DNA from: Corynebacterium sp.
GTDB taxonomy: Bacteria; Actinomycetota; Actinomycetes; Mycobacteriales; Mycobacteriaceae
Length of the DNA: 48,767 nucleotides
Direction of reading: 5' to 3'
NCBI GenBank assembly: GCA_030527885.1
Contig: JAUMZY010000013.1
Span: 1-48,767 of the forward strand
Notes under the pieces: generated by a model
The model's input: only the letters and a program-made list of their open reading frames with translations
Told to the model about the DNA's origin: nothing
The model's database searches: none
Program-made: the position numbers and the translations under genes
Shown: piece by piece, positions 4,308 through 41,146 of the stretch
Layout of the letters: every line of letters starts with the position of its first letter
Position numbering within the stretch: position 1 is the first letter of the stretch

Positions 4308-5491
4308 GTAGCAATTGGGTCTTTCCGCGATATTTTCTCCAGTAGCGTCAAACACCCGCACGCTACCAGCAATAGTGCTGCGAGCGTACAGAGGAGCGTC
4401 GAAAAGCTTAGGTGCAGTTGTGCGGTGAGCGGTCCTAGGCTGGCGCCGACGAATAACACTGCGCCATTGATGGCCATGCCGCCGGCGCGGTAGGGGGCTG
4501 ATGTTTCGCCGAAAAGGGTGATCATAGTGGGCACGACCAAAGCAATGCCTACGACAAACACCAAGCTAGATGCCGCAATTCCCCATAGTGTAGAGGCTAG
4601 CAATGCTTCTAGTGCCAAGCCGAGTGCGGCGATGAGGAAACTGATGCGGGCAACGTTGATGATGCCGAGCCGCCGGGTGAAAAAGCCAATTGTGAGGGCG
4701 ACAAACATGCCGGGGAGGCCGACGAGTCGCAGCCAAATCAATTGGGTGGGGGAGCTGCCGAGGGTGGTTAATTGGGTGCCGAGGGCGGTGTACATGGCGA
4801 CGAAGCTCAGCAGTACGGTGAGGTGCGCGAGGCAGAGTAATTGCACTCGGGGTTTCAGGAATAGTTGCCCCACGACTGCGAAACTTTGTGCGAGTCGATG
4901 TGCGGTGTCGGTGCGGGGGAGTTCTGCCATGTTGCGGGCGGGGAGGAGGAGCGCGCAGCACAGAGCAAGGATGGCGCTGCTGATGGCAAAGACTGCCCGC
5001 CAGGTGTCGAATGTGAGGTTGAGGGTGGCTGCGAATACTTGGCCGAAAATGCCGGCGACTAGAAATGCGGTGGACATGGCGCCGATTGCGAGGGGCCGGT
5101 GTCGGGGTGGGGTGGCTTCGGCGAGGTAGGCAAGCGCGATGGGGGCGAAGCTGGCGGCGGCGAATCCTTGGATGCCGCGGAGGGCCGCGAGGGTGCCTAG
5201 GTTGGGGGCTGCGCTGCAAAGTGCAGTGGTGGCGACGAGCAAGATCATGCCGATGAGCAGTACTTTTTTGCGGCCGTATCGGTCGGAGAGTGGGCCCCAC
5301 ACGAGGAAGCCGAGGGCGTAGCACAGGCTGAAGGCGATCGAGAGTGCGAAGGTGGCGTTGCCTTGGAGGTTGGTGCTGACTGGTGTGATGAGCGGGATGG
5401 CTAGGTAGAGCTGTGTGAGCACCATGAGGGCGGTGCCGATGAGGAGCACCACGGTGAGTGGGGTGGCGGGGTAGGTGGGGGACGTGGACAT
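4304..5491 (-). CDS. MFS transporter, drug:H+ antiporter type
   Basis: Inner-membrane transporter of 395 aa with about 12 hydrophobic helices. The loop 2-3 signature is GPLSDRYGRKK, and PPRHRPLAIGAMS follows helix 4-5. It resembles the Bcr/CflA and YnfM branch of the major facilitator superfamily that exports drugs or metabolites using the proton gradient. The start at 5491 (MSTSPTYPATPLTVV) is preferred: an earlier in-frame ATG would add a charged leader lying over the operator region. It is divergent from a TetR-family regulator, with two inverted repeats in between, so expression is probably repressed by that regulator. The substrate is unknown. Confidence 0.87.
   Translation of the reverse strand: MSTSPTYPATPLTVVLLIGTALMVLTQLYLAIPLITPVSTNLQGNATFALSIAFSLCYALGFLVWGPLSDRYGRKKVLLIGMILLVATTALCSAAPNLGTLAALRGIQGFAAASFAPIALAYLAEATPPRHRPLAIGAMSTAFLVAGIFGQVFAATLNLTFDTWRAVFAISSAILALCCALLLPARNMAELPRTDTAHRLAQSFAVVGQLFLKPRVQLLCLAHLTVLLSFVAMYTALGTQLTTLGSSPTQLIWLRLVGLPGMFVALTIGFFTRRLGIINVARISFLIAALGLALEALLASTLWGIAASSLVFVVGIALVVPTMITLFGETSAPYRAGGMAINGAVLFVGASLGPLTAQLHLSFSTLLCTLAALLLVACGCLTLLEKISRKDPIAT
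4396..4407 (+). repeat. Dispersed 12-mer GCGTCGAAAAGC, copy 1
   Basis: Exact copy on the plus strand, inside the minus-strand MFS gene, where the coding strand reads Ser-Phe-Ser-Thr-Leu. Confidence 0.85.
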
Positions 5492-5504
5492 GTAAAACCT
5501 CAAT

Positions 5505-5522
5505 TCCAACTTTTTGGTTGGA
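5505..5522. promoter_or_regulatory. Upstream half of the TetR/MFS operator pair
   Basis: TCCAAC (5505-5510) and GTTGGA (5517-5522) form an inverted repeat with a 6-base spacer, 13 bases upstream of the MFS start. It shares the TCCAAC core with the stronger palindrome at 5549-5570, suggesting two sites for one repressor. Confidence 0.55.
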
Positions 5523-5548
5523 GTTGAGTGTAGCACAGGCGAATCCAA

Positions 5549-5570
5549 TTTCCAACTATTTAGTTGGAAA
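5549..5570. promoter_or_regulatory. Palindromic operator of the divergent TetR regulator
   Basis: TTTCCAACT (5549-5557) and AGTTGGAAA (5562-5570) are a perfect 9-bp inverted repeat with a 4-base spacer. It is placed between the divergent MFS and TetR genes, as expected for a TetR-family autoregulatory operator. Binding is inferred from position and symmetry. Confidence 0.65.
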
Positions 5571-5693
5571 TGTGGTAAACCAATGATGAATCAACCACGC
5601 CGCCAACCACACAGCCACCCCCACCACCAACCGAACCACCCGGTAAACTGCAAGAAGCACCAACAACACAGACCACACCGTTTAAGGACACAC

Positions 5694-6287
5694 ATGGCTT
5701 GGGACACCGAAGGAACCAAAAAGAAAATTCTTGACGCCGCACTCATAGAATTCGCCAACCATGGGCCAGACGGCACCACCATCGCCAAAATCGCCACCAA
5801 AGCCGGCGTCAACAAAGAACGCATCTACAACTACTTCGGCGACAAACACCAACTCTTCACCCAAGTACTCCGAGTTGAACTAGCCAAAGTAGCCCAAGCC
5901 GTCCCCGTCACCTCCTTCGCGACCGAAGACATAGGCGAATGGGCCGGCAAAGTCTACGACTACCACTGCACCAGCCCCGAACTAAACCGCCTCATGCGCT
6001 GGGAAGGCCTCTACTTCGACGAACAAGTACCCGACGAAGAACTACGCCGCACCTACTACAGCCGCAAAACCCACGCCGTCGAACTCGGCCAGGAAGCCGG
6101 CATCCTCACCACCGACATCGACGCCGATCACATCGCCTTCCTTGTGCTAGCCATCGCCGGCTGGTGGTCCGCCGTCCCCCAAGTAGCCCGCATGTTCACC
6201 GGGCCCGACACCAAAGACGAACACGAACGCCGCCGCGCCGTCGTTATTCAAGCTGCTCGCCGCATAGCCGGCATGGATGCTGCATAG
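5694..6287 (+). CDS. TetR-family transcriptional repressor
   Basis: Regulator of 197 aa. The N-terminal TetR helix-turn-helix is clear at about residues 10-55 (ILDAALIEFANHG, then TTIAKIATKAGVNKERIYNYFGDK), followed by an all-helical ligand domain. ATG 5694 has AAGGA about five bases upstream; an in-frame reading from 5514 would translate through the operator and is unlikely. This leaves an unusually long leader of about 120 bases after the palindrome at 5549-5570. Coding-strand third positions are almost all C, unlike the flanking genes. Likely represses the divergent MFS exporter and itself; the inducer is unknown. Confidence 0.9.
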   Translation: MAWDTEGTKKKILDAALIEFANHGPDGTTIAKIATKAGVNKERIYNYFGDKHQLFTQVLRVELAKVAQAVPVTSFATEDIGEWAGKVYDYHCTSPELNRLMRWEGLYFDEQVPDEELRRTYYSRKTHAVELGQEAGILTTDIDADHIAFLVLAIAGWWSAVPQVARMFTGPDTKDEHERRRAVVIQAARRIAGMDAA

Positions 6288-6310
6288 AACCACGCCGCCT
6301 TATATGATTT

Positions 6311-7057: not shown

Positions 7058-7085
7058 CCACACGAAGCCATCACGGATCGGTAAC

Positions 7086-9852: not shown

Positions 9853-9854
9853 CC

Positions 9855-11179: not shown

Positions 11180-12059
11180 AAAGACCCCTGCTCACCGCAC
11201 TCATAATCACCACCATCGTGCTAACCCCCAGTGCCGTCGCCGCTCCCAACGCCTCGACCAAGGCTCCGACTACTACGGCGCCAACTTCACCGGCAGCACT
11301 GACATCAGCAAAGCCGAAACTACTATCACCTCACTTGGTTGGGTTGGCAACTGGAACTACACTGCCGACGGCGTCCATGCCGCTGAAACCAGTACCGGCT
11401 CTTACCTCAACCAATTGGGCGCCTATAGCCTGCCTCGCGAACTCAGCCTCGACGCTGACAATCGCATTCCCCAAACCATAAAGGCTACCGGCCTGAAAAC
11501 CACCAACACCGTCCGCCATTCCAACGTGACTAAAGACAAACCCATTTCGAAAACAAATACGAAATGGGTGGACCGGCAAGACACTAACGGTGACATCTAC
11601 GGCCTCTACGATATCCCCGACCAGTCTGCCGCACAGAAATACACCCTGAAATTCTGCAACACTTCAAGCAACTACCAGGGCCGCATGTACATCGACCTGT
11701 GGCAAGGCAGTGACTGGGTGCGCTTCAACTACGAGCCCGAAAACGGCTGGTACAATGTCAAAACCCGTGCCGGTGAACTTGACAACAACAAGAAAGGCCA
11801 AGCCGCAACGCACTATTATTACGATGGGTTGCTGGGCAACGGCAACGGCTACAGTGCCCAATCATTGGTCCAAGACCAGCAAGAGATCACGCTGCAGGTG
11901 TACACCGACACCACCTCCGTCGAATTTGTATTCCCTAACGGACAGATCTACACTGTGGCGCGCTTCTCCCAATCCACCAAACAAGATTTCAAGGTCTTCA
12001 CCGAAGACCCCACCGGCAACAACACTGTTGACATCGAGGTCAGCAACCTAGGGCTTTAA
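11176..12059 (+). pseudogene. Secreted protein of unknown function, frameshifted after the signal peptide
   Basis: ATG 11176 overlaps the preceding stop (ATGA). It opens a typical Sec signal peptide, MKRPLLTALIITTIVLTPSA followed by VAAPNAS, with a likely cleavage after AVAA. That frame then turns into low-complexity threonine/alanine and stops at 11481. The neighbouring frame is clearly the mature protein: DQGSDYYGANFTGSTDISKA, then GWVGNWNYTADGVHAAETS, continuing to 12059. One base missing between 11255 and 11256 explains the break (TC-N-GAC restores Ser-Asp). The restored product is about 294 aa and rich in Gly, Asn, Tyr and Thr. I do not recognise the family. It is co-transcribed with the hydrolase and LssY_C genes, suggesting a shared envelope function. 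Confidence 0.65.
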
Positions 12060-12119
12060 CTAGCTTATCGACGCCTCCAAGTCGGCGCGGGTTGTTGGCT
12101 GGTGCGCAGCCTCACCAAC

Positions 12120-17988: not shown

Positions 17989-18052
17989 CCAGCGCTTTTG
18001 TAAGAGTTTGGTTTTGCTGTTAATATTTACCTCCGATGCTAACGCAGCGTGC

Positions 18053-18125
18053 GCGCCTTTAGCTCAGCTGGGAGAGCAGCTGGTTTACACCCAGCAGGTC
18101 GGCGGTTCGAGCCCGTCAGGGCGCA
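18053..18125 (+). tRNA. tRNA-Val (anticodon TAC)
   Basis: A complete cloverleaf can be drawn. The acceptor arm is GCGCCTT with AGGGCGC; the D arm is GCTC/GAGC; the anticodon arm is GCTGG/CCAGC with loop TTTACAC giving anticodon TAC; the T arm is GGCGG/CCGTC with TTCGAGC. The discriminator is A at 18125 and CCA is not encoded. It reads valine GUA/GUG-type codons. A plausible promoter (TAATATTT near 18020) lies upstream, and cobD starts 23 bases downstream. Confidence 0.96.
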
Positions 18126-18147
18126 CAATAACAGTAAGGCGGCGGCC

Positions 18148-19080
18148 ATGTCCATAGGAATCATCCTGGGCATGGCCGCCGACCGCATATGTGGGGATCC
18201 CCCCACCGCAATCCACCCCGTGGCACTCTTCGGCCGCACCGCCCACGCATTAGAACAAACATGCTACCGTGATTCGAAAGTCGCCGGCGTCGTGTTCCTC
18301 AGCACAGCCGTTATCCCACCCGTGGCCGCAACATACCTGCTCAGCCGCCGTTATCCCACCGCCACGCTGGCCTTCAGTCTCTTCTGCGCCCTCGGCGGCA
18401 CCACGCTCGAAAAAATCGGCGGCCGCATGGCCACCGCCCTTGACACCCACCAACTCGACGACGCACGGGAACTCATACCCTGGCTATGCTCCCGCGACCC
18501 CAACCAGCTCGACGAGCAGGGCATGATCCGCGCCACCGTGGAATCCCTGGCCGAAAACACCTCCGACGCCGCCATCGCACCCCTGTTGTGGGCCACCTGC
18601 GGCGCCCCTGGCGTGGTGCTGCACCGCCTCGTCAACACCCTTGACGCTATGGTCGGCTACCAGTCACCGCGCTACCGCAACTTTGGGTGGGCCGCCGCCA
18701 AACTTGACGACGCCCTCGCGTACCTCCCCGCCCGCTTCACCGCCCTGAGCCACGTCGGTTACGCCACCACCTGCGGCCGCAGTCGCGCAGCCTGGCGCGC
18801 CTGGCTTTTCGACGCCCCCAGCCACCCCAGCCCCAACGCCGGTCCCGTGGAAGCCACCGCCGCCGGTGCTCTAGGCACCACCCTGGGCGGCACCACCATC
18901 TACGCCCACGGCACCGAAAACCGCCCTACCTTGGGTAATGGCCCCGCCCCCACCACCGCCACCATCCGGGAAGCCATCACATTATCCCGGTGCACCCAAG
19001 TTGTTGCGGGACTAAGCGCAATAGCAGTGACAACGCTGCGCGGGCAGCGTCGAAAAGCACGGAAAAACCAGTTTTCTTAG
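18148..19080 (+). CDS. cobD: Adenosylcobinamide-phosphate synthase CobD/CbiB
   Basis: Membrane enzyme of 310 aa that attaches aminopropanol (or its phosphate) to adenosylcobyric acid in cobalamin synthesis. Family blocks are DRICGDPPTAIHPVALFGR near residue 12, ATVESLAENTSDAAIAPLLW near 130, and NTLDAMVGYQSPRYRNFGWA near 165. Several hydrophobic helices support the membrane location. ATG 18148 has TAAGG ten bases upstream; an earlier in-frame start would overlap the tRNA. Two copies of the 12-mer GCGTCGAAAAGC lie in this gene in opposite orientation (18804-18815 and 19047-19058), in different codon frames. Confidence 0.92.
   Translation: MSIGIILGMAADRICGDPPTAIHPVALFGRTAHALEQTCYRDSKVAGVVFLSTAVIPPVAATYLLSRRYPTATLAFSLFCALGGTTLEKIGGRMATALDTHQLDDARELIPWLCSRDPNQLDEQGMIRATVESLAENTSDAAIAPLLWATCGAPGVVLHRLVNTLDAMVGYQSPRYRNFGWAAAKLDDALAYLPARFTALSHVGYATTCGRSRAAWRAWLFDAPSHPSPNAGPVEATAAGALGTTLGGTTIYAHGTENRPTLGNGPAPTTATIREAITLSRCTQVVAGLSAIAVTTLRGQRRKARKNQFS
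18804..18815 (-). repeat. Dispersed 12-mer GCGTCGAAAAGC, copy 2
   Basis: Exact copy on the minus strand within cobD; the plus strand reads Leu-Phe-Asp-Ala here. It is paired with the oppositely oriented copy 243 bases downstream. Confidence 0.85.
19047..19058 (+). repeat. Dispersed 12-mer GCGTCGAAAAGC, copy 3
   Basis: Exact copy near the 3' end of cobD, reading Gln-Arg-Arg-Lys-Ala, in a different codon frame from copy 2. Confidence 0.85.
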
Positions 19081-22201: not shown

Positions 22202-23242
22202 GTGAACCTGCCAGCCCAGCAACCACCCCGCATTCATGGCGATATTGCAGCCCGCGGCGCAGCCCTCGACTTCGCCGTCAACGTCGCCGCAACCACTCCA
22301 AGCTGGCTTATCAACGCTCTCAGCAGCCAACTTTCCCACCTAGCCGCCTACCCCGACGCCACAAAAGTCGCAGAAGTAGAAGCCGCAATTGCCGCCTACC
22401 ACACCATTCCCCCCGAACATGTGATGTTGCTTGCAGGAGCCGCCGAAGGCTTTGCTTTACTACCCACATTGTCGGTTAACCACCCCACCATCATTCATCC
22501 CGGATTCGCTGAACCAGACATCACCTTCACCACCGCCGGGCGCACCGTCCACCGAATAATCCTGCTCGCCCCCTTCCGCACCCTACCCCCCATCAACCAC
22601 CCCACCGACCTCATCATGATCGGCAACCCCACTAACCCCACCGGGGTGCTCTGGAACCCCACCGACCTAGCGGCACTCGCCCAACCCGGCCGCTTCCTCG
22701 TGGTAGACGAAGCCTTCATGGACATTGTGGGGGAAGAACACTCCATCATCCCTCACGTGCCCACCAACCCACAGATCATCGTGCTGCGCAGCCTCACCAA
22801 AACCTGGGCGCTCGCCGGCCTGCGCGTCGGCTACATGGTGGCAGACCCCGACACCGTCCTCACACCCCTACGGCAGCGCCGGGCCCACTGGCCGGTGGGC
22901 ACCCTGCAAATCGCGGCGGCGGAAGCCGTGTTCAACCGGGGCGTGCGGGAGCTGCCGGCCCGCAGGCAGGAGATGCAGGCGCAGCGGGCAGCTATGCTGG
23001 CGGCGTTAGGGGACATCAATTGGCTGCCAGTGAGCGAGTCGCATGCGCCGTTTGTGTTGGTGCGGCCGGGGGAGCGCACGCCGGCGCAGGCCAAGGAACT
23101 GTACGAGGCGTTGTTGGCCCAGGGCATTGCGCTGCGCCGATGCGATACTTTCCCTGGGTTAGGATGGAACTATTTCCGCCTCGCGGTGCGGAAAACCCCA
23201 CAGGTAGAATCCCTCATAACTGAGCTAAGGAGCATGTGCTAA
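22202..23242 (+). CDS. cobC: PLP-dependent aminotransferase-like enzyme, cobalamin CobC type
   Basis: Fold type I PLP enzyme of 346 aa, related to threonine-phosphate decarboxylase and histidinol-phosphate aminotransferase, and a likely source of the aminopropanol arm of cobalamin. The PLP lysine is K200 in LRSLTKTWALAGLRVGY; NPTNPTGVLW near 142 and FLVVDEAFMDIV near 165 are typical. The start is GTG 22202, with a weak GAAAGA upstream. Codons change from C-ending to G-ending near 22,880. The stop overlaps the start of the Nif3-like gene (TAATG). Function inferred from family and from cobD nearby, though cobD is not adjacent. Confidence 0.82.
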   Translation: MNLPAQQPPRIHGDIAARGAALDFAVNVAATTPSWLINALSSQLSHLAAYPDATKVAEVEAAIAAYHTIPPEHVMLLAGAAEGFALLPTLSVNHPTIIHPGFAEPDITFTTAGRTVHRIILLAPFRTLPPINHPTDLIMIGNPTNPTGVLWNPTDLAALAQPGRFLVVDEAFMDIVGEEHSIIPHVPTNPQIIVLRSLTKTWALAGLRVGYMVADPDTVLTPLRQRRAHWPVGTLQIAAAEAVFNRGVRELPARRQEMQAQRAAMLAALGDINWLPVSESHAPFVLVRPGERTPAQAKELYEALLAQGIALRRCDTFPGLGWNYFRLAVRKTPQVESLITELRSMC

Positions 23243-24393
23243 TGCCAGATAATTCCCCCGTTACCGTCGGCGATGTTGTTCGGGTATTGGATCAGGCCTA
23301 CCCGCCATATTTGGCAGAGAGCTGGGATAAAGTCGGCCTGATCTGCGGCGACCCGGCGGCAGAGGTGCGTAAGATTGCGCTGGCCTTGGACTGCACCCAG
23401 ACGGTGGCGGATGCTGCGGTGGCGGCGGGTGCGGATATGCTCATTGTGCATCACCCACTGCTGTTGCGGGGCGTGCACACCGTCGCGGCCAATACGCCCA
23501 AGGGCAAGGTTATTCACACACTCATTCGTAACGACGTGGCATTGTTTGCCGCCCACACCAATGCTGATTCTGCACGGCCTGGGGTGAATGATAAATTGGC
23601 GGAACTCGTGGGCATTACTGCCGGTAGGCCCATCAAACCCATTCGGTTTGGCCTGGATAAGTGGGGTGTGCAGGTGCCGGTGGCGGATGCGGAAGCCCTG
23701 AAAGCAGCGCTGTTTGCCGCTGGCGCTGGGGAGATAGGGGAGTATTCGGAATGCGCGTTCAGCTGGGAAGGGGCGGGGCAGTTTCGGCCGTCGACAAGCG
23801 CAAATCCGGTGATTGGAGCGCGCGCAGAGCTTACCCACGTGGCCGAAGCGCGGGTGGAGTTCGTGGCGCCGCGGCGGTTGCGGGAAACCCTCATGGATGT
23901 GCTGCGAACCGCACACCCGTACGAAGAAGTGGCATTCGATATTGTTGCCATGGAACCCACCCAACCCTTGGACACGGCGTATGGCCTGGGGCGGGTCGGG
24001 GAGCTGCCCGCGCCCATGCGTTTCGCCGACTTCGTTCAGCAGGTAGCCAACGCGCTGCCGGCGACGGAATGGGGCGTGCGGGCCGCTGGCGACCCCGACC
24101 AGCTGGTTCGTACCGTTGCCGTGAGTTCCGGCTCGGGCGATAGCTTTCTCGACGCGGTGACGGCGCTCGGGGTGGACGTGTATGTTACCTCTGATCTGCG
24201 GCATCACCCCGTTGATGAGCACCTGCGGGCCGGCGGCCCCCTCATCGTTGACACGGCGCACTGGGCTAGCGAATATCCGTGGACTTCGCAGGCTGCTGAG
24301 ATTGTGCAGGCTGCGCTGCCGCTTATCGACGTCGCAGTGTTGCCGATTCGCACTGATCCGTGGACTATTTCGGCTCACCCCACAACCGGCTAG
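23242..24393 (+). CDS. Nif3-like dinuclear metal center protein
   Basis: Hexameric metal-binding protein of 383 aa (YqfO/YbgI/Nif3 family). Metal-site motifs are IVHHPLLLRGV near residue 65, HTNADSARPGVNDKL near 105, YVTSDLRHHPVDEH near 312 and DTAHWASE near 335. The insert between the two halves (about residues 125-265) matches the longer YqfO form. GTP cyclohydrolase I type 2 activity has been reported for one relative, but the general role is unknown. ATG 23242 overlaps the cobC stop by one base; a GTG at 23236 is possible. The gene begins a run of three with a zinc-ribbon gene and an RNase H-phosphatase gene. Confidence 0.92.
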   Translation: MPDNSPVTVGDVVRVLDQAYPPYLAESWDKVGLICGDPAAEVRKIALALDCTQTVADAAVAAGADMLIVHHPLLLRGVHTVAANTPKGKVIHTLIRNDVALFAAHTNADSARPGVNDKLAELVGITAGRPIKPIRFGLDKWGVQVPVADAEALKAALFAAGAGEIGEYSECAFSWEGAGQFRPSTSANPVIGARAELTHVAEARVEFVAPRRLRETLMDVLRTAHPYEEVAFDIVAMEPTQPLDTAYGLGRVGELPAPMRFADFVQQVANALPATEWGVRAAGDPDQLVRTVAVSSGSGDSFLDAVTALGVDVYVTSDLRHHPVDEHLRAGGPLIVDTAHWASEYPWTSQAAEIVQAALPLIDVAVLPIRTDPWTISAHPTTG

Positions 24394-26299: not shown

Positions 26300-26722
26300 A
26301 ATTGAGCCGACCGGGCGATTGCGGCCACCCGAACCACCACTAGCACGGCGGTAAGCGGGTTGCCGAGGAAAGTCCGGACTCCACAGAGCACGGTGGTTGC
26401 TAACAGCAACCCAGGGTAACCTGCGGGAAAGTGCAACAGAAAGTAAACCGCCCGGCCCCCTGGGCCAGGTAAGGGTGAAACGGTGTGGTAAGAGCACACC
26501 AGCGAGGTAGGTGACTACCCCGGCTATGTAAACCCCACCCGGAGCAAGGCAAGAATAGTGTACTCGACTACCAAGCCAAGTACGCTTGGGCAAACGCTAC
26601 TGGGCTGCTCGCCCAAAGTTTGCAGGTAGCCGCTTGAGGCTGTCAGCAATGACACGCCCAGATGGATGATCGCCACCGCACAAAACTGCGGCACAGAATC
26701 CGGCTTACAGGTTGGCTCAATT
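26300..26722 (+). ncRNA. rnpB: RNase P RNA, bacterial class A
   Basis: The catalytic RNA of RNase P, which trims tRNA 5' ends. The universal block GAGGAAAGTCCGGACTCC is at about 26366-26383, and the matching 3' block ACAGAATCCGGCTTACAG is at about 26693-26710. The ends pair as AATTGAGCC (26300-26308) with GGCTCAATT (26714-26722), closing helix P1. Internal features such as GGGTGAAACGGTGTGGTAAGA are also typical. The ends are estimated from this pairing and may differ by a few bases. Confidence 0.95.
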
Positions 26723-26776
26723 GCACCACCAACACCCAACCCACCTGGTTTGATACCACCAAGCGCCAAGCCGGCG

Positions 26777-26788
26777 GCGTCGAAAAGC
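26777..26788 (+). repeat. Dispersed 12-mer GCGTCGAAAAGC, copy 4
   Basis: Exact copy in the space between rnpB and the RNB exonuclease gene, 34 bases upstream of the ATG. Confidence 0.85.
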
Positions 26789-26821: not shown

Positions 26822-28234
26822 ATGAAACTATACGCAGCCCAGCTGGACTTCCACGCCATCCTGACCGAGTTTCAACTCCACCCCGAATTTTCCTCCGAAG
26901 TACTCGCCGACGCTGACGCCGCCACCGACAGATACGCCTCCGAACGCATCGGCGCAACAGACATCAACCTCGTCACCATCGACCCACCCGGCTCCATGGA
27001 CCTCGACCAAGCAGTCTGCATCGAAGCAGGCGACGGCCAATACATTGTGCACTATGCCATTGCCGACGTCGCGGCCTTCATCATCCCCGGCAGTGCACTG
27101 CACGCCGAATCACTCCGCCGTGGGCAAAGCATCTACCTGCCGGACCAAACCATCCGCCTGCACCCACCGCAACTCTCTGAAGGCAAAGCCAGCCTCTTAC
27201 CAGACCAAACCCGGCCCGCCATCCTCTGGACCATCACCCTTGACAGCCACGGCCAATGGGCGGACTACCGCATCAGCCGCGCCCTCGTGCGGTCCCGCGC
27301 CCGCTTCACCTACGAAGAAACCCAAGCCGCCCATGAAGCCGGCACCCTACATCCCGCCATCGCCGCCCTGCCGGAAGTAGGCCAGCTACTACAAACCAGT
27401 GCGGTGCGTGCCGACGCCATCACCCTGAACTTCCCTAGCCAAGCCGTGCAACAAACCCCCACCGGACTCTTCGAACTCATAATCGAACCGCGGTTGCCGA
27501 TGATGGGCTACAACTCCGAAATCTCCCTCCTCGCCGGCAGATGCGCCGGCACCACCATGGCCGAAGCCGGCGTCGGCATCCTCCGCACCCTCGCCGACCT
27601 CGAACCCCACACCATCACCCAATTCTGGACCGAAGCCGAACACCTAGGCTTCACCGAACACCCAGAATCTATAGGCGAATTTCTCCGCATCCTCAACGCC
27701 AACACACCCCGCGGCATGGCCATTATGCGAGAAGCCCAAAAACTTCTCCGCGGCGCCGAATACCTCAACCTCGCCGACACCACACCCCAAGTCCACGCCG
27801 GCGTCATCCACAACAACGGCACCGCCAAACCCGAATACTATTCCCACGTCACCGCTCCACTCCGCCGACTCATCGACCGCTACGCCACAGAAATCGTGCT
27901 CAGCCTCCAGGCTGGTTCCGACATTCCCGACTGGGTCACCCAGGACCTACCAACCGTCCTGAACACCATGACCAGCAGCAGCCGACTAGCCGGTACCGTC
28001 GGCGCCGCCTGCCTAGACTACTGCGAAGCCGAAGTGCTCAAAACCTACGTGGGCCAACAATTCCCCGCCATCACGGTGCAAACCAACCCCCGACACCACA
28101 CCACCCGCGTGTTCGTTGATAACCCGCCGGTCTTCGCCGAATGCGACGGCGCCCTAACCGAAGGCGAACGGCACACCATCACCCTGACCGAAGCCGACCC
28201 CGCGCGCCGGGCAGTGCGGTTTAGCGCCGGGTGA
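26822..28234 (+). CDS. RNB-domain 3'-5' exoribonuclease
   Basis: Ribonuclease II-family enzyme of 470 aa, shorter than RNase R because the cold-shock and S1 domains are missing or reduced. The RNB domain begins at NLVTIDPPGSMDLDQAVCIE (about residues 50-69), where the aspartates bind Mg2+. It shows YIVHYAIADVAAFI and later EYYSHVTAPLRRLIDRYA (about 338-355), the conserved C-terminal block. It would degrade RNA from the 3' end in the cytoplasm. ATG 26822 follows a weak leader with no strong ribosome binding site. Coding-strand codons are mostly C-ending. It lies just after rnpB, so RNA processing genes sit together. Confidence 0.88.
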   Translation: MKLYAAQLDFHAILTEFQLHPEFSSEVLADADAATDRYASERIGATDINLVTIDPPGSMDLDQAVCIEAGDGQYIVHYAIADVAAFIIPGSALHAESLRRGQSIYLPDQTIRLHPPQLSEGKASLLPDQTRPAILWTITLDSHGQWADYRISRALVRSRARFTYEETQAAHEAGTLHPAIAALPEVGQLLQTSAVRADAITLNFPSQAVQQTPTGLFELIIEPRLPMMGYNSEISLLAGRCAGTTMAEAGVGILRTLADLEPHTITQFWTEAEHLGFTEHPESIGEFLRILNANTPRGMAIMREAQKLLRGAEYLNLADTTPQVHAGVIHNNGTAKPEYYSHVTAPLRRLIDRYATEIVLSLQAGSDIPDWVTQDLPTVLNTMTSSSRLAGTVGAACLDYCEAEVLKTYVGQQFPAITVQTNPRHHTTRVFVDNPPVFAECDGALTEGERHTITLTEADPARRAVRFSAG

Positions 28235-28326: not shown

Positions 28327-29592
28327 TTAGATCAAGTCTGCTTTAGTGCCGGAGTGCAGCGGCATGACTAACAGCCTATCGTCGCTTAAATCCGCCATGA
28401 AATTAGCCGCCTGGGCGGCCGGCACCAACGCCACCACGGCGCTGGAAATGCCACTGTGGGTACTGCGGGCACTGTTGGCGCCACGACTGAGGCAGAGCTT
28501 CGCCACGTGATCATCCGCCCCCGTGATGCCATAAAGCGAATCCATGTTCGATTGGGATTCTGTGAGGGGTGGGTACAAAGCAGTGATGTCCCGGCCGCGG
28601 ATAGTACTGGCGATAACTCGAATGAGGTGCAACTCCGCATCGTGGAACTTCAACCAATTTTCGGCTTCAATGATGCTAGGCAGGTCGGCGCTGCCATGCA
28701 CTTCATGCTTGGCGCGCAACCAGTCGATCACACGCACCTGGGCGTCCGGGAGGGAGCGAATAGACTCAGCACCAAACGCCCGGGCGGCGTCGTTGATGAA
28801 GGTTTGGCGGCGGATAAGTCGCTCCGTATTCGCATCCATGAGCGGCGGGGCAACAAGCACCGCGGTGACCTGTTGGGAATCTAGAATAGGATTAGTGCGC
28901 TGCGTGGCTTCAGTAATGGAATAATCAGCGTAATTCACCACGTTAATGACGGTATTCTTACCCCGAAGGGTTGCCAAATAGCGGGCGCGCAGCGGCGGAA
29001 CACTGTGCGCTTGAACTGCCGCCTGGTAGCACGTGTCGGCGAGTTTCGCGCGGGTGGGTGGGGAGTCAATTTCCTCGGCGTTGTGCGTGAGCGCGAGGGC
29101 AGTCGCCACTTCAATGGCGGCATCTTCCCCAAGGCCCACAGCCGGCGGAATATCACTCATGATAGTGATGTCGAAGCCTTTAGCGTCGCGGCTGAGTAGC
29201 TGGCGTTGCACCAGCGCACCGATGAGGTGGGCAAGTACTTCAGCTCTGGTATTCGCCGCAGCAGTATCGGATTCAACAGAGGGGTCCACCACGGTGGTTT
29301 CCGTAGTTTCAGAGCTATACTCCTGGGCGGCAACATCGTACGTGTATTCGGTTACCTTGATGATGTGATCCGTGCGGGGGCTGATGGCCGCAGCAGCGCG
29401 GGCCTGGCAGAAACTCATCATGACGATGCCGCCGGCGTGGTCCGTGTGCTCGCCGATCAGCGACCACGTGGCGGGAGCGGTGGCAACAGCAACCGCAGGC
29501 TGCCCGGTGTTGTTCTTGTGGTGGGTACTCACCTCGGCACTGAGGTTGCTGCTGATGATGTCAGGATCCTGACTGGTGGGCCATACCGGCAT
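28327..29592 (-). CDS. Galactokinase-like GHMP protein with altered active site
   Basis: Protein of 421 aa with the N-terminal galactokinase signature WSLIGEHTDHAGGIV (residues 43-57), which places it in the GalK family. Other key parts are changed. The phosphate-binding motif, normally with a Ser-Ser-Ser run, reads PAVGLGEDAAIEVA (150-163). The CG-x-x-DQ segment holding the catalytic aspartate is replaced by HSVPPLRARYLATLRGK. The C-terminal TGAGFGG motif is replaced by SARSTHSGISSA. It may be a non-catalytic relative or have a different substrate. ATG 29592 (MPVWPTSQDP) was chosen; the longer in-frame reading to 29736 includes non-coding sequence. No gal genes are nearby. Confidence 0.75.
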   Translation of the reverse strand: MPVWPTSQDPDIISSNLSAEVSTHHKNNTGQPAVAVATAPATWSLIGEHTDHAGGIVMMSFCQARAAAAISPRTDHIIKVTEYTYDVAAQEYSSETTETTVVDPSVESDTAAANTRAEVLAHLIGALVQRQLLSRDAKGFDITIMSDIPPAVGLGEDAAIEVATALALTHNAEEIDSPPTRAKLADTCYQAAVQAHSVPPLRARYLATLRGKNTVINVVNYADYSITEATQRTNPILDSQQVTAVLVAPPLMDANTERLIRRQTFINDAARAFGAESIRSLPDAQVRVIDWLRAKHEVHGSADLPSIIEAENWLKFHDAELHLIRVIASTIRGRDITALYPPLTESQSNMDSLYGITGADDHVAKLCLSRGANSARSTHSGISSAVVALVPAAQAANFMADLSDDRLLVMPLHSGTKADLI

Positions 29593-29670
29593 GATGGTTG
29601 CTTTCTTGTGATCGTTGGGGTGGTTGGTTCTTTCACTAATGTAGTAGTAAAACCCGGCGCGGGTCGGTGC

Positions 29671-29682
29671 GCTTTTCGACGC
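29671..29682 (-). repeat. Dispersed 12-mer GCGTCGAAAAGC, copy 5
   Basis: Exact copy on the minus strand in the intergenic region between the GalK-like gene and the small gene at 29795. Confidence 0.85.
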
Positions 29683-29794
29683 GCCCAAGTCCCAGCCGCT
29701 GCATTTGGTCATCACCGCAGCCAATAACCGCACCATATGGAAGTGTTAAAATTGGTGCACAGTCATATTCTGTGTCTAAGAGAAAGTGATGATC

Positions 29795-30016: not shown

Positions 30017-31549
30017 TTATTCCTGTTGCAGTCGCTTGTATGCCCGGGATACTGCACTGAATGCGGCGGGGTAATCCTGCAAAATCTGCCGGCTTAACTC
30101 CACTTCAGTTTCGTACAACACCCCATAAATGAAGGTGTTTTCGCCCCGCTGGAATGCTTGATCTGATTTCTTAACCAGTTTCTCCCGGGAGGTTACGCTG
30201 TCTTGGAAATCGCCCAGCACTTCCTGTAGGGCTTTGCACGCCTGGTACAACTCGGTGGTGTCTATGTCAGTGGCATCACCGACTGCCTCTGTGGTGTACC
30301 GCAGTTTCTTCGTCGCTTTGCGCACGTTGTGGAACTTTTGTTCCTGCTGCGGCCGCAACGCGGAATGCCCATCCCACGCCTTCATGGCTTTCTTGTGGCG
30401 CTTGGCCAGCACCTTGAAGCTATCCGCCAAGTGCGACACCAATACGCTTTCCGCCGGGGGAGTGTCCTCTGTTTCAGCCAGCTCGGGGTGGCTGATCAGA
30501 TCATCCAATTCGTTCAGCAGTTGTAAATACTTGTCGTCGTTGAGCGCCACCACGACACGTTGATGCGCGGCACCATATTCCGCAATCATGCTGTCGTACA
30601 ACTGTTTGGTGTTTTCCTCGTTGATGATGCCGCTGGGGTGCTGCTCACACAGGTCTTTAAACCGCTCAGCAATCATCTCAGCGTCCCGCGCCACCCCAAG
30701 AATCGTCGCTAGTTGCTTCAGCTGTTCCTCCACGTTTTTATGCTGATTACCAGCAAGAATCCCCGCGAAGCTCTGCAAATGGCTCCGCAGCTCCCGGGTG
30801 GCAACCCGCATTTGATGAATCGAATCCCACTCATCCTGCCGCACCCGCGGATCGTAAGCCAGCAGCTTATCCCGGTTCCGCTTCAACGCCGCCAACACCC
30901 CAGCGGCCGGCGAATTCGGGTCAATGTCCACGCTCGCCGGCTCCGTGGGCAAGTCCGCCCCCAACGCCATCGCCAGTTTCGAAGGGCTTTTCGACGCCGC
31001 GGCGCCAGCTTGTTTCAAGGTTGGTGTGGCACATGCGATAAACTTCGCCGGCGTCTCCGGGGTGATCTCTAACTCCCACTCCCGCCAGCTCGTGGGCGTA
31101 TCCGAAATCAACGACCTAGCAGTGACATGATCATCACAAAACTCCGCAATTACTTCACCGTCAGCATTGCCCAACAGGGTTTCTACCCGCTCATTATCCA
31201 CCTGCGCAATGGGCACCAATTCTTTACCGCGCGCAATTGAACGCACCATCGAATAGATTTCCGCCGGCACCCCATCACCCCCAACAATGGGGTGATGCAC
31301 TTCCAGCCGGCCGCCCTTACCAGGGAATTTAATATGCCAACCATCATCACTACCGCCAGTGCGGCGCCGCACCGTCACCTTAGATCGCGTCAAACGCAAA
31401 TCATCAGTATCAAAATACAACGCTGACAAGTGGTGGGTTCTGGTGGAAACAATTTTCTCCACCTGCGGGATTTCTAACAGATCGGGCACTTCCGTATCGG
31501 TGCTGACTGAAAATTTTGCTTCAACTTCCATCTGACTCTTAAGTCCCAT
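30017..31549 (-). CDS. CYTH and CHAD domain protein
   Basis: Protein of 510 aa. The N-terminal CYTH domain (about residues 1-200) has the metal/triphosphate motif MEVEAKFSV and basic strand TVRRRTGGSDDGWHIKFPGK. The CHAD domain (about 225-500) is helical and rich in histidine and arginine, with LLAYDPRVRQDEWDSIHQMR and KFHNVRKATKKLRYTTEAVG. CYTH domains hydrolyse triphosphates; CHAD domains bind polyphosphate, so the protein likely acts in polyphosphate metabolism. ATG 31549 or ATG 31531 may be the start. It is divergent from glnA2. It carries one 12-mer copy at 30986-30997. Confidence 0.92.
   Translation of the reverse strand: MGLKSQMEVEAKFSVSTDTEVPDLLEIPQVEKIVSTRTHHLSALYFDTDDLRLTRSKVTVRRRTGGSDDGWHIKFPGKGGRLEVHHPIVGGDGVPAEIYSMVRSIARGKELVPIAQVDNERVETLLGNADGEVIAEFCDDHVTARSLISDTPTSWREWELEITPETPAKFIACATPTLKQAGAAASKSPSKLAMALGADLPTEPASVDIDPNSPAAGVLAALKRNRDKLLAYDPRVRQDEWDSIHQMRVATRELRSHLQSFAGILAGNQHKNVEEQLKQLATILGVARDAEMIAERFKDLCEQHPSGIINEENTKQLYDSMIAEYGAAHQRVVVALNDDKYLQLLNELDDLISHPELAETEDTPPAESVLVSHLADSFKVLAKRHKKAMKAWDGHSALRPQQEQKFHNVRKATKKLRYTTEAVGDATDIDTTELYQACKALQEVLGDFQDSVTSREKLVKKSDQAFQRGENTFIYGVLYETEVELSRQILQDYPAAFSAVSRAYKRLQQE
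30986..30997 (-). repeat. Dispersed 12-mer GCGTCGAAAAGC, copy 6
   Basis: Exact copy on the minus strand within the CYTH-CHAD gene, reading Ala-Ser-Lys-Ser in the coding strand. Confidence 0.85.
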
Positions 31550-31615: not shown

Positions 31616-31627
31616 GCGTCGAAAAGC
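31616..31627 (+). repeat. Dispersed 12-mer GCGTCGAAAAGC, copy 7
   Basis: Exact copy in the divergent space between CYTH-CHAD and glnA2, 23 bases before the glnA2 ATG. Confidence 0.85.
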
Positions 31628-37540: not shown

Positions 37541-38968
37541 ATGCGTTATATTTCCACCCGCGACGAATCGCGCACTGAAACCAACTTTAGCGATATCTTA
37601 CTGGGCGGCCTCGCCCCCGACGGCGGCCTGTACTTACCGGCGGAATACCCACAGATTAGCGGCGATACATTAAATAGGTGGCGCAAGCTGCTGGGGGAGC
37701 AAGGCTACCCCGCGCTCGCCGCAGAAGTCTTACAGCTCTTTATCGACGACATCCCCGCCGCCGACCTCAACGACATTGCCCACCGGGCCTACACCTTCCC
37801 CAAATTCGCCCATGCCGAAATTGTGCCCGTCACCCCCCTGGAGGACGGCCTCTACATTGGGCACCTCTCCGAAGGCCCCACCGCCGCCTTCAAGGACATT
37901 GCCATGCAGCTGCTGGGGGAGTTCTTTGAATACGAGCTACGGCGCCGGGGCGAAACCCTCAATATTTTAGGCGCAACCTCCGGGGATACCGGTTCCGCAG
38001 CGGAATACGCCATGCGCGGCCGCCCCGGCATCAAAGTGTTCATGCTGACGCCTGCCGGCCGCATGACTCCCTTCCAGCAGGCACAAATGTTCGGTTTGGA
38101 TGACCCCAACATCTTCAACATTTCCCTCGAAGGAGTGTTCGATGATTGCCAGGACGTGGTGAAGGCCGTATCCGCCGACGCCGACTTTAAGCGCGAACAC
38201 CACATTGGGGCGGTCAACTCCATCAACTGGGCTCGCCTCGTGGCGCAGGTGGTGTACTACATTTCTTGCTACCTGCGGGTAACCGACTCCAACGAGCAGA
38301 AAGTGTCGTTCAGTGTTCCCACCGGCAACTTCGGTGACATCTGCGCGGGCCACGTCGCAAAGCAAATGGGCGTGCCCATCGACCGCCTCATTGTTGCCAC
38401 CAACGAAAATGACGTGCTGGACGAATTCTTCCGCACTGGCGTCTACCGCGTGCGCTCTTCCGCAGACACGTTCGAAACATCGTCGCCGTCGATGGACATC
38501 TCCCGCGCCTCAAACTTCGAACGTTTCATCTTCGATCTGCTCGGCCGCGACGCCGCCCGCGTCGCCGACTTGTTCGGCACCCAGGTTCCCCAAGGGGGCT
38601 TCTCGCTTGCCGACGACCCCAGCTTCACCCAAACCAGCAGCACGTACGGGTTCCTCTCCGGATTCTCCACCCACACTGATCGCGTAGCAACCATCCGGGA
38701 CTGCTACGAACGCCTCGGCATCATGATCGACCCACATACCGCTGACGGTGTGAAAGTCGCCCGAGACATGCGCGACCAAGTAGACACTCCCATTGTGTGT
38801 TTGGAAACTGCGCTGCCTGTGAAATTCGCTGACATTATCACCGAAGCCACCGGCCAGCAACCCGATCTGCCCGAACGATTTGCCGCCATCATGCAGGCAG
38901 AACGCCACGTCACAGACCTGCCCAATGACGCCACTGTGGTTAAAGACTTCATCGCGGCAAACGGTTAA
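37541..38968 (+). CDS. thrC: Threonine synthase
   Basis: PLP enzyme (475 aa) converting O-phosphohomoserine to threonine. The PLP lysine is K118 in EGPTAAFKDIAMQ; GATSGDTGSAAEYAM near 142 binds the phosphate. The sequence follows the C. glutamicum ThrC closely as I recall it (MRYISTRDESR start, FSVPTGNFGDICAGH, NENDVLDEFFRTG, SPSMDISRASNFERF). The start ATG 37541 was chosen from that match; an in-frame start at 37445 would add 32 residues unlike the family. This long form with an N-terminal extra domain is the class II type of corynebacteria and enterics. hom and thrB are not adjacent. Confidence 0.95.
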   Translation: MRYISTRDESRTETNFSDILLGGLAPDGGLYLPAEYPQISGDTLNRWRKLLGEQGYPALAAEVLQLFIDDIPAADLNDIAHRAYTFPKFAHAEIVPVTPLEDGLYIGHLSEGPTAAFKDIAMQLLGEFFEYELRRRGETLNILGATSGDTGSAAEYAMRGRPGIKVFMLTPAGRMTPFQQAQMFGLDDPNIFNISLEGVFDDCQDVVKAVSADADFKREHHIGAVNSINWARLVAQVVYYISCYLRVTDSNEQKVSFSVPTGNFGDICAGHVAKQMGVPIDRLIVATNENDVLDEFFRTGVYRVRSSADTFETSSPSMDISRASNFERFIFDLLGRDAARVADLFGTQVPQGGFSLADDPSFTQTSSTYGFLSGFSTHTDRVATIRDCYERLGIMIDPHTADGVKVARDMRDQVDTPIVCLETALPVKFADIITEATGQQPDLPERFAAIMQAERHVTDLPNDATVVKDFIAANG

Positions 38969-39014
38969 ACTAAAAAACGCACCACGTCGACAAGCAACAA
39001 GAAAGGCACACACC

Positions 39015-39685: not shown

Positions 39686-39709
39686 CGCTAGTGGGATAAG
39701 GAATTTTTG

Positions 39710-39751: not shown

Positions 39752-39796
39752 ACCATTGGTGGCTGTGCGGGGGAGTGAGATCATGTGCTACGTTAG

Positions 39797-39813
39797 TTGC
39801 ATGCACATGAATG
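39797..39813. promoter_or_regulatory. Candidate MarR operator, autoregulatory site
   Basis: TTGCATGCACATGAATG lies 26 bases before the MarR ATG. Its reverse complement matches the sequence at 40320-40336 at 15 of 17 positions, so both are probably sites of the same regulator, one before the regulator and one before the efflux genes. Confidence 0.6.
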
Positions 39814-39838
39814 TAGTTTCGGTAGGGGAGTGAGCAGC

Positions 39839-40279
39839 ATGGCGTTACCAGGTGGATCATGGTCATTGATCGTCGCTGCTGTCACTGATATTGAGGCGCG
39901 TTTAGGTAAATGGCTCGTTGCTCAACATGGCGTGGGGCTCACGGAATATCGCGCAATCATGCAGTTGGCAGAAGCCCCAGAACGTGAACTGCGCATCACT
40001 GAACTTGCCGAGCGAGTGGGCCTGAATCAGAGTTCCGCCACGCGATTGGTGGGCCGCTTAGAATCCAAAGATCTTGCTTTTCGGGATACCTGCCCTGATG
40101 ACGGTCGAGGAGTGTACGCCGTTATTACGGACAAAGGTGTATCGCTGGTGCAGGATTTATCGGAGTCATACACCGAGAAACTCACCGATCTGTTGAATGC
40201 TTACACCAAGCATGGTTCAGGGCCGGATTCCCAAGCAATTCGGTCGGCATTTCACCACCTGGGTGATATGATCTCTTAA
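39839..40279 (+). CDS. MarR-family transcriptional regulator
   Basis: Regulator of 146 aa with the MarR winged helix: LRITELAERVGLNQSSATRLVGRLESKDLA-type recognition region (about residues 60-90, seen as ELAERVGLNQSSATRLVGRL) and wing DTCPDDGRGVYAVITDKG. The helices at both ends form the dimer interface. ATG 39839 has a GGGGAG ribosome binding site; an upstream in-frame start would overlap the operator-like site at 39797-39813. It is followed by two small multidrug resistance genes, with a matching operator-like site in the gap. Likely represses itself and the efflux pair and is released by a cationic or aromatic compound. Confidence 0.9.
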   Translation: MALPGGSWSLIVAAVTDIEARLGKWLVAQHGVGLTEYRAIMQLAEAPERELRITELAERVGLNQSSATRLVGRLESKDLAFRDTCPDDGRGVYAVITDKGVSLVQDLSESYTEKLTDLLNAYTKHGSGPDSQAIRSAFHHLGDMIS

Positions 40280-40319
40280 AGGTCTGCTCGTTGCCGGCCT
40301 TATATTTTTTATCCAAATA

Positions 40320-40336
40320 CATGCATGTGCATGCAT
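40320..40336. promoter_or_regulatory. Candidate MarR operator upstream of the SMR genes
   Basis: CATGCATGTGCATGCAT is nearly a perfect palindrome around GTGC and matches, in reverse orientation, 15 of 17 bases of the site at 39797-39813. It lies 52 bases before the first SMR gene. Confidence 0.6.
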
Positions 40337-40387
40337 TATTTATGGGTGTGTTGTCCATAACCACAACAACCAACTGAAAGGAACACC

Positions 40388-40707
40388 ATGTAATGGCTCT
40401 ATCTCACCATCGCAACCATTTTCGAAATCACCGTGGGCATCGCCGCCGGTAAAGCCCAAGGCTTCCGAAACATCCCCTGGACCATCGCCACCCTGGCAAG
40501 CGGCGCCGCAGCCACATTCTTTCTCAGCCGTGCCCTCCTCACCTTTGACGTCGGTGTCGGCTACGCACTATGGACGGCTCTCGCTGGCGTCGGCATCGTC
40601 ATCATCGGAGCTATCTTCCTCAAACAACAGCTCACCTGGAAAAACTCCTAGGAATCGCAGTCATTATCATCGGCGTCGTAGGCCTCAACCTCACCGAAAC
40701 TGCCTAA
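40388..40707 (+). pseudogene. SMR-family efflux subunit, stop at codon 2 and frameshift
   Basis: A small multidrug resistance protein can be read as WLYLTIATIFEITVGIAAGK, then four hydrophobic helices. Two lesions break it. ATG 40388 is followed directly by TAA (ATG-TAA-TGG), so codon 2 is a stop. Near the end, the reading frame is lost after TWKN at the A5 run 40640-40644; adding one A restores LLGIAVIIIGVVGLNLTETA up to the stop at 40705. The essential membrane glutamate of this family (in TIFEIT) lies before the only internal start, GTG 40433, so a restarted product would lack it. It would be the partner of the intact SMR protein that follows. Confidence 0.75.
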
Positions 40708-40740
40708 TCACCAACCCCAACCAAAGCAACAGGGAACACA

Positions 40741-41109
40741 ATGACAACACACACTAACCACCAGAAAACCACCGCACGATCCTGGACAGCACTCCTTATC
40801 GCAGGAATATTCGAAATTGGATACGCACTTAGCGTCAACGGCAGCCAAGGCTTCACCAACCTCACATGGTCAATCATCGCCATCATTTTTTTCCTCGGAA
40901 CCCTCTTTTTCCTCAGCGTGGCACTCAAACACATTGATGTAGGCATCGGCTACGCAATGTGGGCAGGTATCGGCGCAACCGGCGCAGCCCTCTTCGGCCC
41001 CGTTTTCTTCACAGAAACCTTCACCCTGAACAAAGCCCTATGGCTTGCTCTCATCATCGCTGGCGTCATCTGGCTCAAACTCGCAGACAGTGAAAAACTT
41101 GCCGCTTGA
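40741..41109 (+). CDS. Small multidrug resistance efflux protein
   Basis: Inner-membrane protein of 122 aa with four helices typical of SMR/EmrE transporters, which exchange protons for cationic compounds. The essential membrane glutamate is E25 in LLIAGIFEIGYALSV, and the GIGYAMWAGIGATGAALFG segment is the helix 3 signature. It has an N-terminal soluble extension of about 14 residues (TTHTNHQKTTARSW). It follows the broken SMR gene, as in paired systems (EbrAB or YkkCD type), and probably belonged to a heterodimer. If the first subunit is truly lost, it may act alone or be inactive. Confidence 0.9.
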   Translation: MTTHTNHQKTTARSWTALLIAGIFEIGYALSVNGSQGFTNLTWSIIAIIFFLGTLFFLSVALKHIDVGIGYAMWAGIGATGAALFGPVFFTETFTLNKALWLALIIAGVIWLKLADSEKLAA

Positions 41110-41134
41110 TACATACACCAAGAGGATACTTTAG

Positions 41135-41146
41135 GCGTCGAAAAGC
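41135..41146 (+). repeat. Dispersed 12-mer GCGTCGAAAAGC, copy 8
   Basis: Exact copy in the intergenic space 26 bases after the SMR stop codon, before a hairpin. A weaker match (10 of 12, opposite strand) lies at 41235-41246. Confidence 0.85.

What the first reader, a model, noticed from the sequence alone, without database searches (positions are those of the whole stretch)
4396..41146. A dispersed exact 12-mer, GCGTCGAAAAGC, eight copies in under 49 kb
Exact copies are at 4396, 19047, 26777, 31616 and 41135 on the plus strand and 18804, 29671 and 30986 on the minus strand. Eleven-of-twelve copies are at 12063 and 46162 (minus strand). With independent bases at about 57% GC, fewer than 0.01 exact copies are expected in both strands. 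Four lie between genes (26777, 29671, 31616, 41135) and four inside genes (MFS, cobD twice, CYTH-CHAD), where they fall in different codon frames, so the signal acts at DNA level rather than protein level. It is not a palindrome, and seven of eight exact copies have a purine before it. Similar density and behaviour are known for DNA uptake sequences of Neisseria and Pasteurellaceae, Chi sites and FtsK-orienting KOPS; none is described to my knowledge for a corynebacterium with this sequence. It could also be a nucleoid protein or regulator site.
Basis: partly seen in the sequence, partly recalled or inferred. Interest (0 to 1): 0.8.

Follow-up and report, generated by a model that had tools for sequence, protein, structure and literature searches.

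The report
Candidate DNA-uptake tag of Corynebacterium
A short DNA word is scattered hundreds of times over the genomes of most Corynebacterium species examined, in species-specific spellings, and looks like a self-recognition tag for taking up DNA from relatives, a kind of tag known to us so far only from two groups of Gram-negative bacteria.

Summary
The 12-mer is part of CGTCGAHAAGC (H = A, C or T): 14 copies in the window, 613 in the 1.64-Mb, 53%-complete genome (307/306 by strand; mirrored control 18). Of 242 genomes of the genus, 187 carry one of four dialects at 60 or more copies; 112, 58 and 16 lead with CGTCGAHAAGC, CGTCGKHAAGC and CATCGAHAAGC, one has the different word CGCGRCGTCAW 913 times, and in 55 I found none. 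In 387 genomes of the order outside the genus the excess is about twofold at most. Strands are even overall and by replichore in the one genome sampled (70/77). Copies favour intergenic DNA, are absent from 80 kb of plasmid-like contigs, and in one 20-kb locus pair at 82% identity 9 of 14 are unchanged (13-16% expected). RecC was found in none of 80 genomes. RecBCD-Chi, KOPS and a mobile repeat are therefore unlikely. Best reading: a DNA uptake sequence for natural transformation through ComEA/ComEC and Tad pili, with dialects as in Neisseriaceae. Against it: com and tad genes are also present in motif-free species, no receptor is known, and uptake is untested.

The parts
2277..2287 (-). core motif CGTCGATAAGC, inside ORF 2140-2922 (HpcH/HpaI aldolase)
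4397..4407 (+). core motif CGTCGAAAAGC (12-mer from 4396), inside the 3' part of the MFS ORF 4304-5548 (-)
12063..12073 (-). core motif CGTCGATAAGC just after the end of ORF 11415-12059, called intergenic (convergent)
18804..18814 (-). core motif CGTCGAAAAGC inside cobD (CobD/CbiB)
19048..19058 (+). core motif CGTCGAAAAGC (12-mer from 19047) near the 3' end of cobD
23789..23799 (+). core motif CGTCGACAAGC inside ORF 23236-24393 (DUF34/NIF3)
24321..24331 (-). core motif CGTCGATAAGC inside ORF 23236-24393 (DUF34/NIF3)
26778..26788 (+). core motif CGTCGAAAAGC (12-mer from 26777) between RNase P RNA (26303-26723) and the RNB-domain gene 26822-28234
29671..29681 (-). core motif CGTCGAAAAGC at the 5' end of the mechanical ORF 28327-29736 (-) (galactokinase-like), perhaps before its true start
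30986..30996 (-). core motif CGTCGAAAAGC inside the CYTH-CHAD gene 30017-31549 (-)
31617..31627 (+). core motif CGTCGAAAAGC (12-mer from 31616), called intergenic, between the CYTH-CHAD gene and a glutamine synthetase gene (mechanical TTG start 31578)
38985..38995 (+). core motif CGTCGACAAGC, called intergenic
41136..41146 (+). core motif CGTCGAAAAGC (12-mer from 41135), called intergenic
46162..46172 (-). core motif CGTCGAAAAGC (5' base A instead of G) inside ORF 45821-46687 (-) (Type ISP specificity domain)
38605..38615 (-). minor form CGTCGGCAAGC (dialect II spelling); 115 dialect II copies in the whole genome against 15 for the control

Best explanation
The word is a DNA uptake sequence: a short tag that a surface or envelope receptor of the natural-transformation machine prefers. 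Incoming fragments that bear it are taken up and recombined more often. Copies therefore accumulate and are maintained by biased transfer (molecular drive), wherever the local function of the DNA tolerates them. Related species keep their own spelling, which favours DNA of their own kind. Shown here: the word, its abundance, strand symmetry, placement, conservation in one pair of related loci, dialects, restriction to the genus among the genomes examined, and the presence of comEA-comEC and a tad pilus operon. Inferred: that uptake is what selects it. Further inferred: that the filament is the Tad/Flp pilus and the receptor a pilin, ComEA or an unfound protein.
For: Abundance: 613 copies in this genome; 78 against 0.134 expected for the 12-mer in 446,623 bases. 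Sharp core: single substitutions of the 12-mer give 0 or 1 copies at nine fixed positions, beside 78. Strands even: 38,219/38,229 over 242 genomes, 70 leading/77 lagging in G026 stretches. Intergenic excess 2.1-fold here (87 of 177 placed copies) and 1.7-fold in G026 (47 of 145); convergent gaps densest. Antisense coding copies sit mostly in one protein-tolerated frame (36 of 42 here, 51 of 58 in G026). All 14 close pairs (up to 80 b) are inverted. Four dialects: 187 of 242 genomes at 60 or more copies (the fourth), including a switch in G071 (913 copies of CGCGRCGTCAW, 14 of the usual word). In 20 kb aligned at 82% identity, 9 of 14 aligned copies are unchanged and the other 5 differ by one base. 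Zero copies in 80 kb from four plasmid-like contigs, 23.6 expected. ComEC and a PF00437 pilus-type ATPase in 80 of 80 genomes, comEA in 59 of 60 loci, tad genes recognisable in 20 of 20 loci. Flp pili are needed for transformation in the actinobacterium Micrococcus luteus (PMC6370729, passages).
Against: ComEC and the PF00437 ATPase are found in motif-free genomes as well, and tad genes are recognisable in the motif-free ones among the 20 loci, so the machinery does not predict the word. Of 80 ComEC matches only two show an internal stop, one in a motif-free genome (G167) and one in a word-bearing genome (G252). No receptor was identified. The paper listings that I saw showed no natural transformation of a Corynebacterium (the second listed 15 of 70 papers). 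Over-representation alone is not proof: the cyanobacterial word GGCGATCGCC is given as 5648 copies against 5 expected (PMC1939737, passages). Close inverted pairs are not in clear excess over random spacing (8 against a mean of 4.9; 6 against 3.7). van Passel reports one orientation as commoner inside genes for uptake sequences (PMC2346458, part 1 of 3); here the orientation counts are 48/42 and 40/58, no consistent bias. One-mismatch copies are not depleted: in this genome 350 against about 170 for the control, 115 of them dialect II and 17 dialect III spellings.
Confidence: 0.68

Rival explanations
1. A Chi-like recombination site read by a helicase-nuclease (RecBCD, or AdnAB in actinobacteria), protecting chromosomal DNA.
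For: Dense, dispersed, conserved in the locus pair, and absent from the plasmid-like contigs sampled. AdnAB was not searched for, so an AdnAB version stays open.
Against: RecC (PF04257) found in 0 of 80 genomes. No strand bias relative to replication in G026 stretches. The fold excess (582-fold for the 12-mer) is far above that given for E. coli Chi (1008 seen, 151 expected; PMC1939737, passages). An 11-base Chi would be unusually long (recalled).
Confidence: 0.1
2. Binding sites of a chromosome-organising or nucleoid protein (such as an occlusion, domain or loop factor).
For: Copies in 19 of 20 stretches spread over G026 and in all 21 stretches of this genome, both strands, intergenic preference, none in the plasmid-like contigs sampled.
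Against: Re-spelling among species of one genus, including a different word at similar density in G071, would need recurrent co-evolution of hundreds of sites. The word is non-palindromic, and I found none of the four spellings at 60 copies in 55 of 242 genomes.
Confidence: 0.1
3. Orientation signal for FtsK (KOPS) or another replication-polarised word.
For: High density.
Against: 70 leading against 77 lagging in the stretches of G026 (p 0.62).
Confidence: 0.02
4. A dispersed mobile or extragenic repeat, or a transcription terminator element.
For: Many copies lie close to gene ends, density is highest in convergent gaps, and close pairs are inverted.
Against: About half or more of the placed copies lie in coding DNA (90 of 177 here, 98 of 145 in G026). 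Flanks carry only weak preferences. In the aligned pair, the copies present in one species only correspond to a single substitution in the other, not to an insertion (1 of the 15 copies of L201 lay outside the alignment).
Confidence: 0.03
5. A highly iterated word of another, unknown kind, comparable with the cyanobacterial GGCGATCGCC (HIP1, name recalled) and tied to methylation or mutation bias.
For: Such words reach similar over-representation (5648 seen, 5 expected; PMC1939737, passages).
Against: Not a palindrome; the core is sharp; conservation in the locus pair is of this word and not of CpG-rich words in general (CGNCG control words: 13% unchanged of 257).
Confidence: 0.07

Closest known systems
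DNA uptake sequence (DUS) of Neisseriaceae and its dialects (PMC3630211, abstract and passages)
   Same: Short non-palindromic word, very many copies, intergenic occurrence with inverted pairs, dialects that follow species.
   Different: Unrelated sequence; Gram-positive actinobacteria with a mycolic-acid envelope (recalled); Tad/Flp pili instead of type IVa pili; no ComP counterpart identified; function untested.
Uptake signal sequence (USS) of Pasteurellaceae (PMC2346458 part 1 of 3; PMC1939737 passages)
   Same: Short core with weaker flanking preferences; more than one version inside one family; copies inside and between genes.
   Different: Different word; the weak preferences here are G/C-rich and upstream, not AT tracts downstream; no consistent orientation bias in genes here; no uptake assay.
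Chi sites
   Same: Dispersed, over-represented, chromosome-associated.
   Different: No strand bias in G026, no RecC found, longer word, much larger excess.
GGCGATCGCC word of cyanobacteria (HIP1, name recalled)
   Same: Extreme over-representation.
   Different: A palindrome; the present word is not.

Membership tests
DNA uptake sequences (DUS/USS) | short non-palindromic word in great excess | tested here: met
   613 in 1.64 Mb, control 18; 78 against 0.134 expected for the 12-mer in 446,623 b
DNA uptake sequences (DUS/USS) | no overall strand bias | tested here: met
   38,219/38,229 in 242 genomes; 70/77 by replichore in G026 stretches
DNA uptake sequences (DUS/USS) | intergenic preference | tested here: met
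   2.1-fold here and 1.7-fold in G026, with a rough gene caller
DNA uptake sequences (DUS/USS) | frequent inverted pairs | tested here: inconclusive
   14 of 14 close pairs inverted, but their number is near random
DNA uptake sequences (DUS/USS) | one orientation commoner inside genes | tested here: inconclusive
   48 sense/42 antisense here, 40/58 in G026
DNA uptake sequences (DUS/USS) | related species share the word or use dialects of it | tested here: met
DNA uptake sequences (DUS/USS) | scarce on foreign or mobile DNA | tested here: met
   0 in 80 kb from four small contigs of G026 and G097 against 23.6 expected; small sample, plasmid nature taken from contig size
DNA uptake sequences (DUS/USS) | host has a transformation machine | tested here: met
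   PF03772 and PF00437 in 80 of 80; tad genes in 20 of 20 loci
DNA uptake sequences (DUS/USS) | the word goes with the machine | tested here: inconclusive
   machine genes also present in word-free genomes, so there is no contrast
DNA uptake sequences (DUS/USS) | DNA with the word is taken up preferentially | not testable with these tools
   needs an experiment
DNA uptake sequences (DUS/USS) | a sequence-specific receptor such as ComP | not tested
   no candidate singled out
Chi of RecBCD | RecC, the Chi reader, present | tested here: not met
   PF04257 in 0 of 80 genomes; the E. coli control rings
Chi of RecBCD | orientation bias along the replichores | tested here: not met
   one genome, sampled
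KOPS | strand polarity toward the terminus | tested here: not met
   one genome, sampled
mobile or extragenic repeat | copies arise by insertion with shared flanks | tested here: not met

The most novel reading that the evidence does not exclude
The tag comes in dialects that differ by one base or, in one species, have switched to another word. If so, sequence-specific DNA uptake arose outside the Gram-negatives, on Tad/Flp pili, and the genus is naturally transformable.
Probability: 0.62. Interest if true: 0.92.

Novelty: new variant of a known kind. Interest (0 to 1): 0.85.

Why it matters
Uptake tags are known to us only from Neisseriaceae and Pasteurellaceae (recalled; PMC1939737's abstract, seen in the listing, names the same two), and why they exist is disputed. 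An independent set of dialects in 187 of 242 genomes of one genus, with a documented switch, would let the drive and self-recognition ideas be tested. It would predict natural transformation in C. glutamicum, where genetics relies on electroporation (recalled), and a barrier or channel for gene flow among the human-associated species.

Tried and rejected
First I read the distribution of the usual word as presence against repeated loss (tree of holA, comEC and comEA, 60 loci). This was wrong in part: several motif-free genomes of that tree use dialect III or IV, so loss counts from that tree are not reported. ComEC and the PF00437 ATPase as presence/absence markers: present in all 80 genomes, no contrast. 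A word search in five motif-free genomes (about 109 kb each) gave a clear new word only in G071; G172, G014 and G010 had best z of 10-12.5, and G085's z of 20 goes with a repeat found mostly in one stretch. The reversed-sequence control is invalid because it mirrors each hit, and is not used. Five more genomes then thought motif-free (one of them, G088, proved to be dialect III) were scanned only for one-base variants of the word, not for new words. Close inverted pairs: not above random. Naming species through TadA returned seven Corynebacterium loci among the 80 kept; three of them (C. haemomassiliense, C. urinipleomorphum, a MAG) carry 9-11 copies of the usual word in 21 kb, a shorter MAG locus 3 in 14.8 kb, and the other three 0 or 1. 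The paper search for the letters CGTCGAAAAG found 128 papers, 20 of them listed; by titles and abstract starts those 20 look unrelated; I opened none.
Full report
Observation. In the whole genome (1,635,886 bases, 25 contigs, 53.4% complete) the 12-mer occurs 181 times, 92 and 89 by strand, against 4 for the word read backwards. In the window plus 20 stretches of the same genome (446,623 bases) it occurs 78 times against 0.134 expected from an order-3 Markov model.

What the word is. Changing one base of the 12-mer at a time shows a core CGTCGAHAAGC. In this genome the other bases give 0 or 1 copies each at nine fixed positions of the core, beside 78; at position 6 they give 1 to 5; position 7 is A, C or T and rarely G. 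The base before the core is G in 58%, and weak G/C preferences reach about 14 bases upstream. G026, a related genome, gives a similar picture (0 to 2 at fixed positions, beside 39). The core is not a palindrome. It occurs 613 times here (307/306; control 18), one per 2.7 kb, and 14 times in the window, plus one copy with G at position 6. One-mismatch copies are not depleted: 350 here against about 170 in the control, of which 115 are dialect II and 17 dialect III spellings.

Genus and beyond. Among 242 genomes of the same genus the core ranges from 2 to 1309 copies, while the mirrored control is about 2 to 31 by my reading of the table. A one-mismatch search in 51 genomes showed that many low genomes hold a re-spelled word. 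Genus-wide counts of CGTCGKHAAGC and CATCGAHAAGC, and of CGCGRCGTCAW, found by scanning the motif-free genome G071 and counted, give this division by the largest count at 60 or more: 112, 58, 16 and 1 genomes, and 55 without (three of these at 40-59). The first two forms often coexist, so that line is gradual. G071 has 913 copies (459/454) of its own word and 14 of the usual one; the other 241 genomes have at most 56 of G071's word by my reading of the table. Near-misses are in clear excess in G167 (646 against 162) and G077 (498 against 190) and about 1.7- to 2-fold in G067, G149 and G159, so more dialects may be hidden in the 55. Outside the genus, 24 genomes hold 0-5 of the 12-mer. In 387 genomes of the same order but other genera, CGTCGDHAAGC is at most about 2.2 times its control by my reading of the table, against 22 times here (728 against 33). 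In 73 loci of titled records outside the genus (1.34 Mb) the four words occur 6, 4, 4 and 6 times against 5, 20, 0 and 9 for mirrored controls.

Placement. With a rough gene caller of my own, 87 of 177 placed copies here are intergenic (another 4 at stretch edges) though about 77% of the bases are coding; in G026 47 of 145 (2 at edges) with 81% coding, that is 2.1- and 1.7-fold (p 3e-14 and 1e-4). Density is highest in convergent gaps, 2.0 per kb against 0.89 in tandem gaps, 0.79 in divergent gaps and 0.26 in coding DNA here; in G026 0.94, 0.72, 0.36 and 0.30. Coding copies are of both orientations (48 sense/42 antisense; 40/58), and antisense copies sit mostly in one frame that reads Leu-(Phe/Val/Ile)-Asp (36 of 42, 51 of 58). 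Sense copies lean to the last fifth of genes (17 of 48, 18 of 40). All 14 adjacent pairs closer than 80 bases are inverted, but their number is not above random. In 19 stretches of G026 the copies are 70 leading and 77 lagging; one stretch of odd skew, without copies, was left out. Four small contigs of G026 and G097, taken as plasmids from their size, have none in 20 kb each, 23.6 expected in all.

Maintenance. The tad locus of G026 and that of a titled Corynebacterium MAG (L201) align over 20 kb at 82% identity. Of 15 copies in L201 (core or K form), 14 are aligned; 9 are identical in G026 and 5 differ by one base. Random 11-column windows are identical in 16% and CGNCG control words in 13%. 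Of 11 copies in G026, 9 are identical and 2 differ by one base. The changed copies differ by substitution, not insertion. This is one locus pair.

Machinery. ComEC (PF03772) and a pilus-type ATPase (PF00437) are found in 80 of 80 genomes, chosen as 40 low, 8 intermediate and 32 high by the usual word; two ComEC matches hold one internal stop each (G167, G252). Of 60 comEC loci, comEA and holA were found in 59 each. In all 20 tad loci, ssd, tadA, tadB, tadC and three small frames have BLAST matches (weakest E 0.001, in G010); the gene names and the term pilin-like are mine by position and resemblance, no family search was run on them. So the machine for uptake exists throughout the sample, and does not separate tagged from untagged species. 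A Flp pilus is required for transformation in Micrococcus luteus (PMC6370729, passages). RecC (PF04257) was found in none of the 80.

Interpretation. Size of excess, strand symmetry, placement, absence from the plasmid-like contigs sampled, maintenance and dialects together match uptake sequences (PMC3630211 abstract and passages; PMC2346458 part 1 of 3; PMC1939737 passages) better than any other known kind of word that I considered. The decisive property, preferred uptake, is untested, and I know of no natural transformation in the genus.

Print search. The listings of ten searches (those of 14, 32 and 66 were capped at 20 of 128, 20 of 22 and 15 of 70) showed, by title and abstract start, no paper describing an uptake sequence or this word in Corynebacterium; papers outside the library were not seen. 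PMC1590033 and PMC2267715, passages only, list C. diphtheriae in their tables; in the passages seen, PMC1590033 discusses uptake sequences for H. influenzae and P. multocida.

Noticed in passing
L040:14087-14549 and further in L040, L041, L042, L044, L045 (contig C9 of the window's genome): A second over-represented family: hairpins of about 64 nt with outer arms TAAGCTCCCWTTCC...GGAAWGGGAGCTTA, four units in a row in L040; no Rfam match at gathering score in L040 and L044.
   Followed up: partly
window 26303-26723 and 18053-18125: RNase P RNA (class A), and a tRNA gene that overlaps the start of the mechanical cobD ORF 18049-19080, so cobD probably starts later.
   Followed up: no
window 45821-46687 (-): C-terminal specificity domain of a Type ISP restriction enzyme.
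   Followed up: no
L057 (G026 contig 1, 900001-920000): A stretch of opposite GC skew and higher GC with no copy of the word, perhaps an acquired island.
   Followed up: no
G480, G576, G044, G330, G396 (other genera of the order): About twofold excess of CGTCGDHAAGC over the mirrored control, far below Corynebacterium levels; may be codon usage.
   Followed up: no
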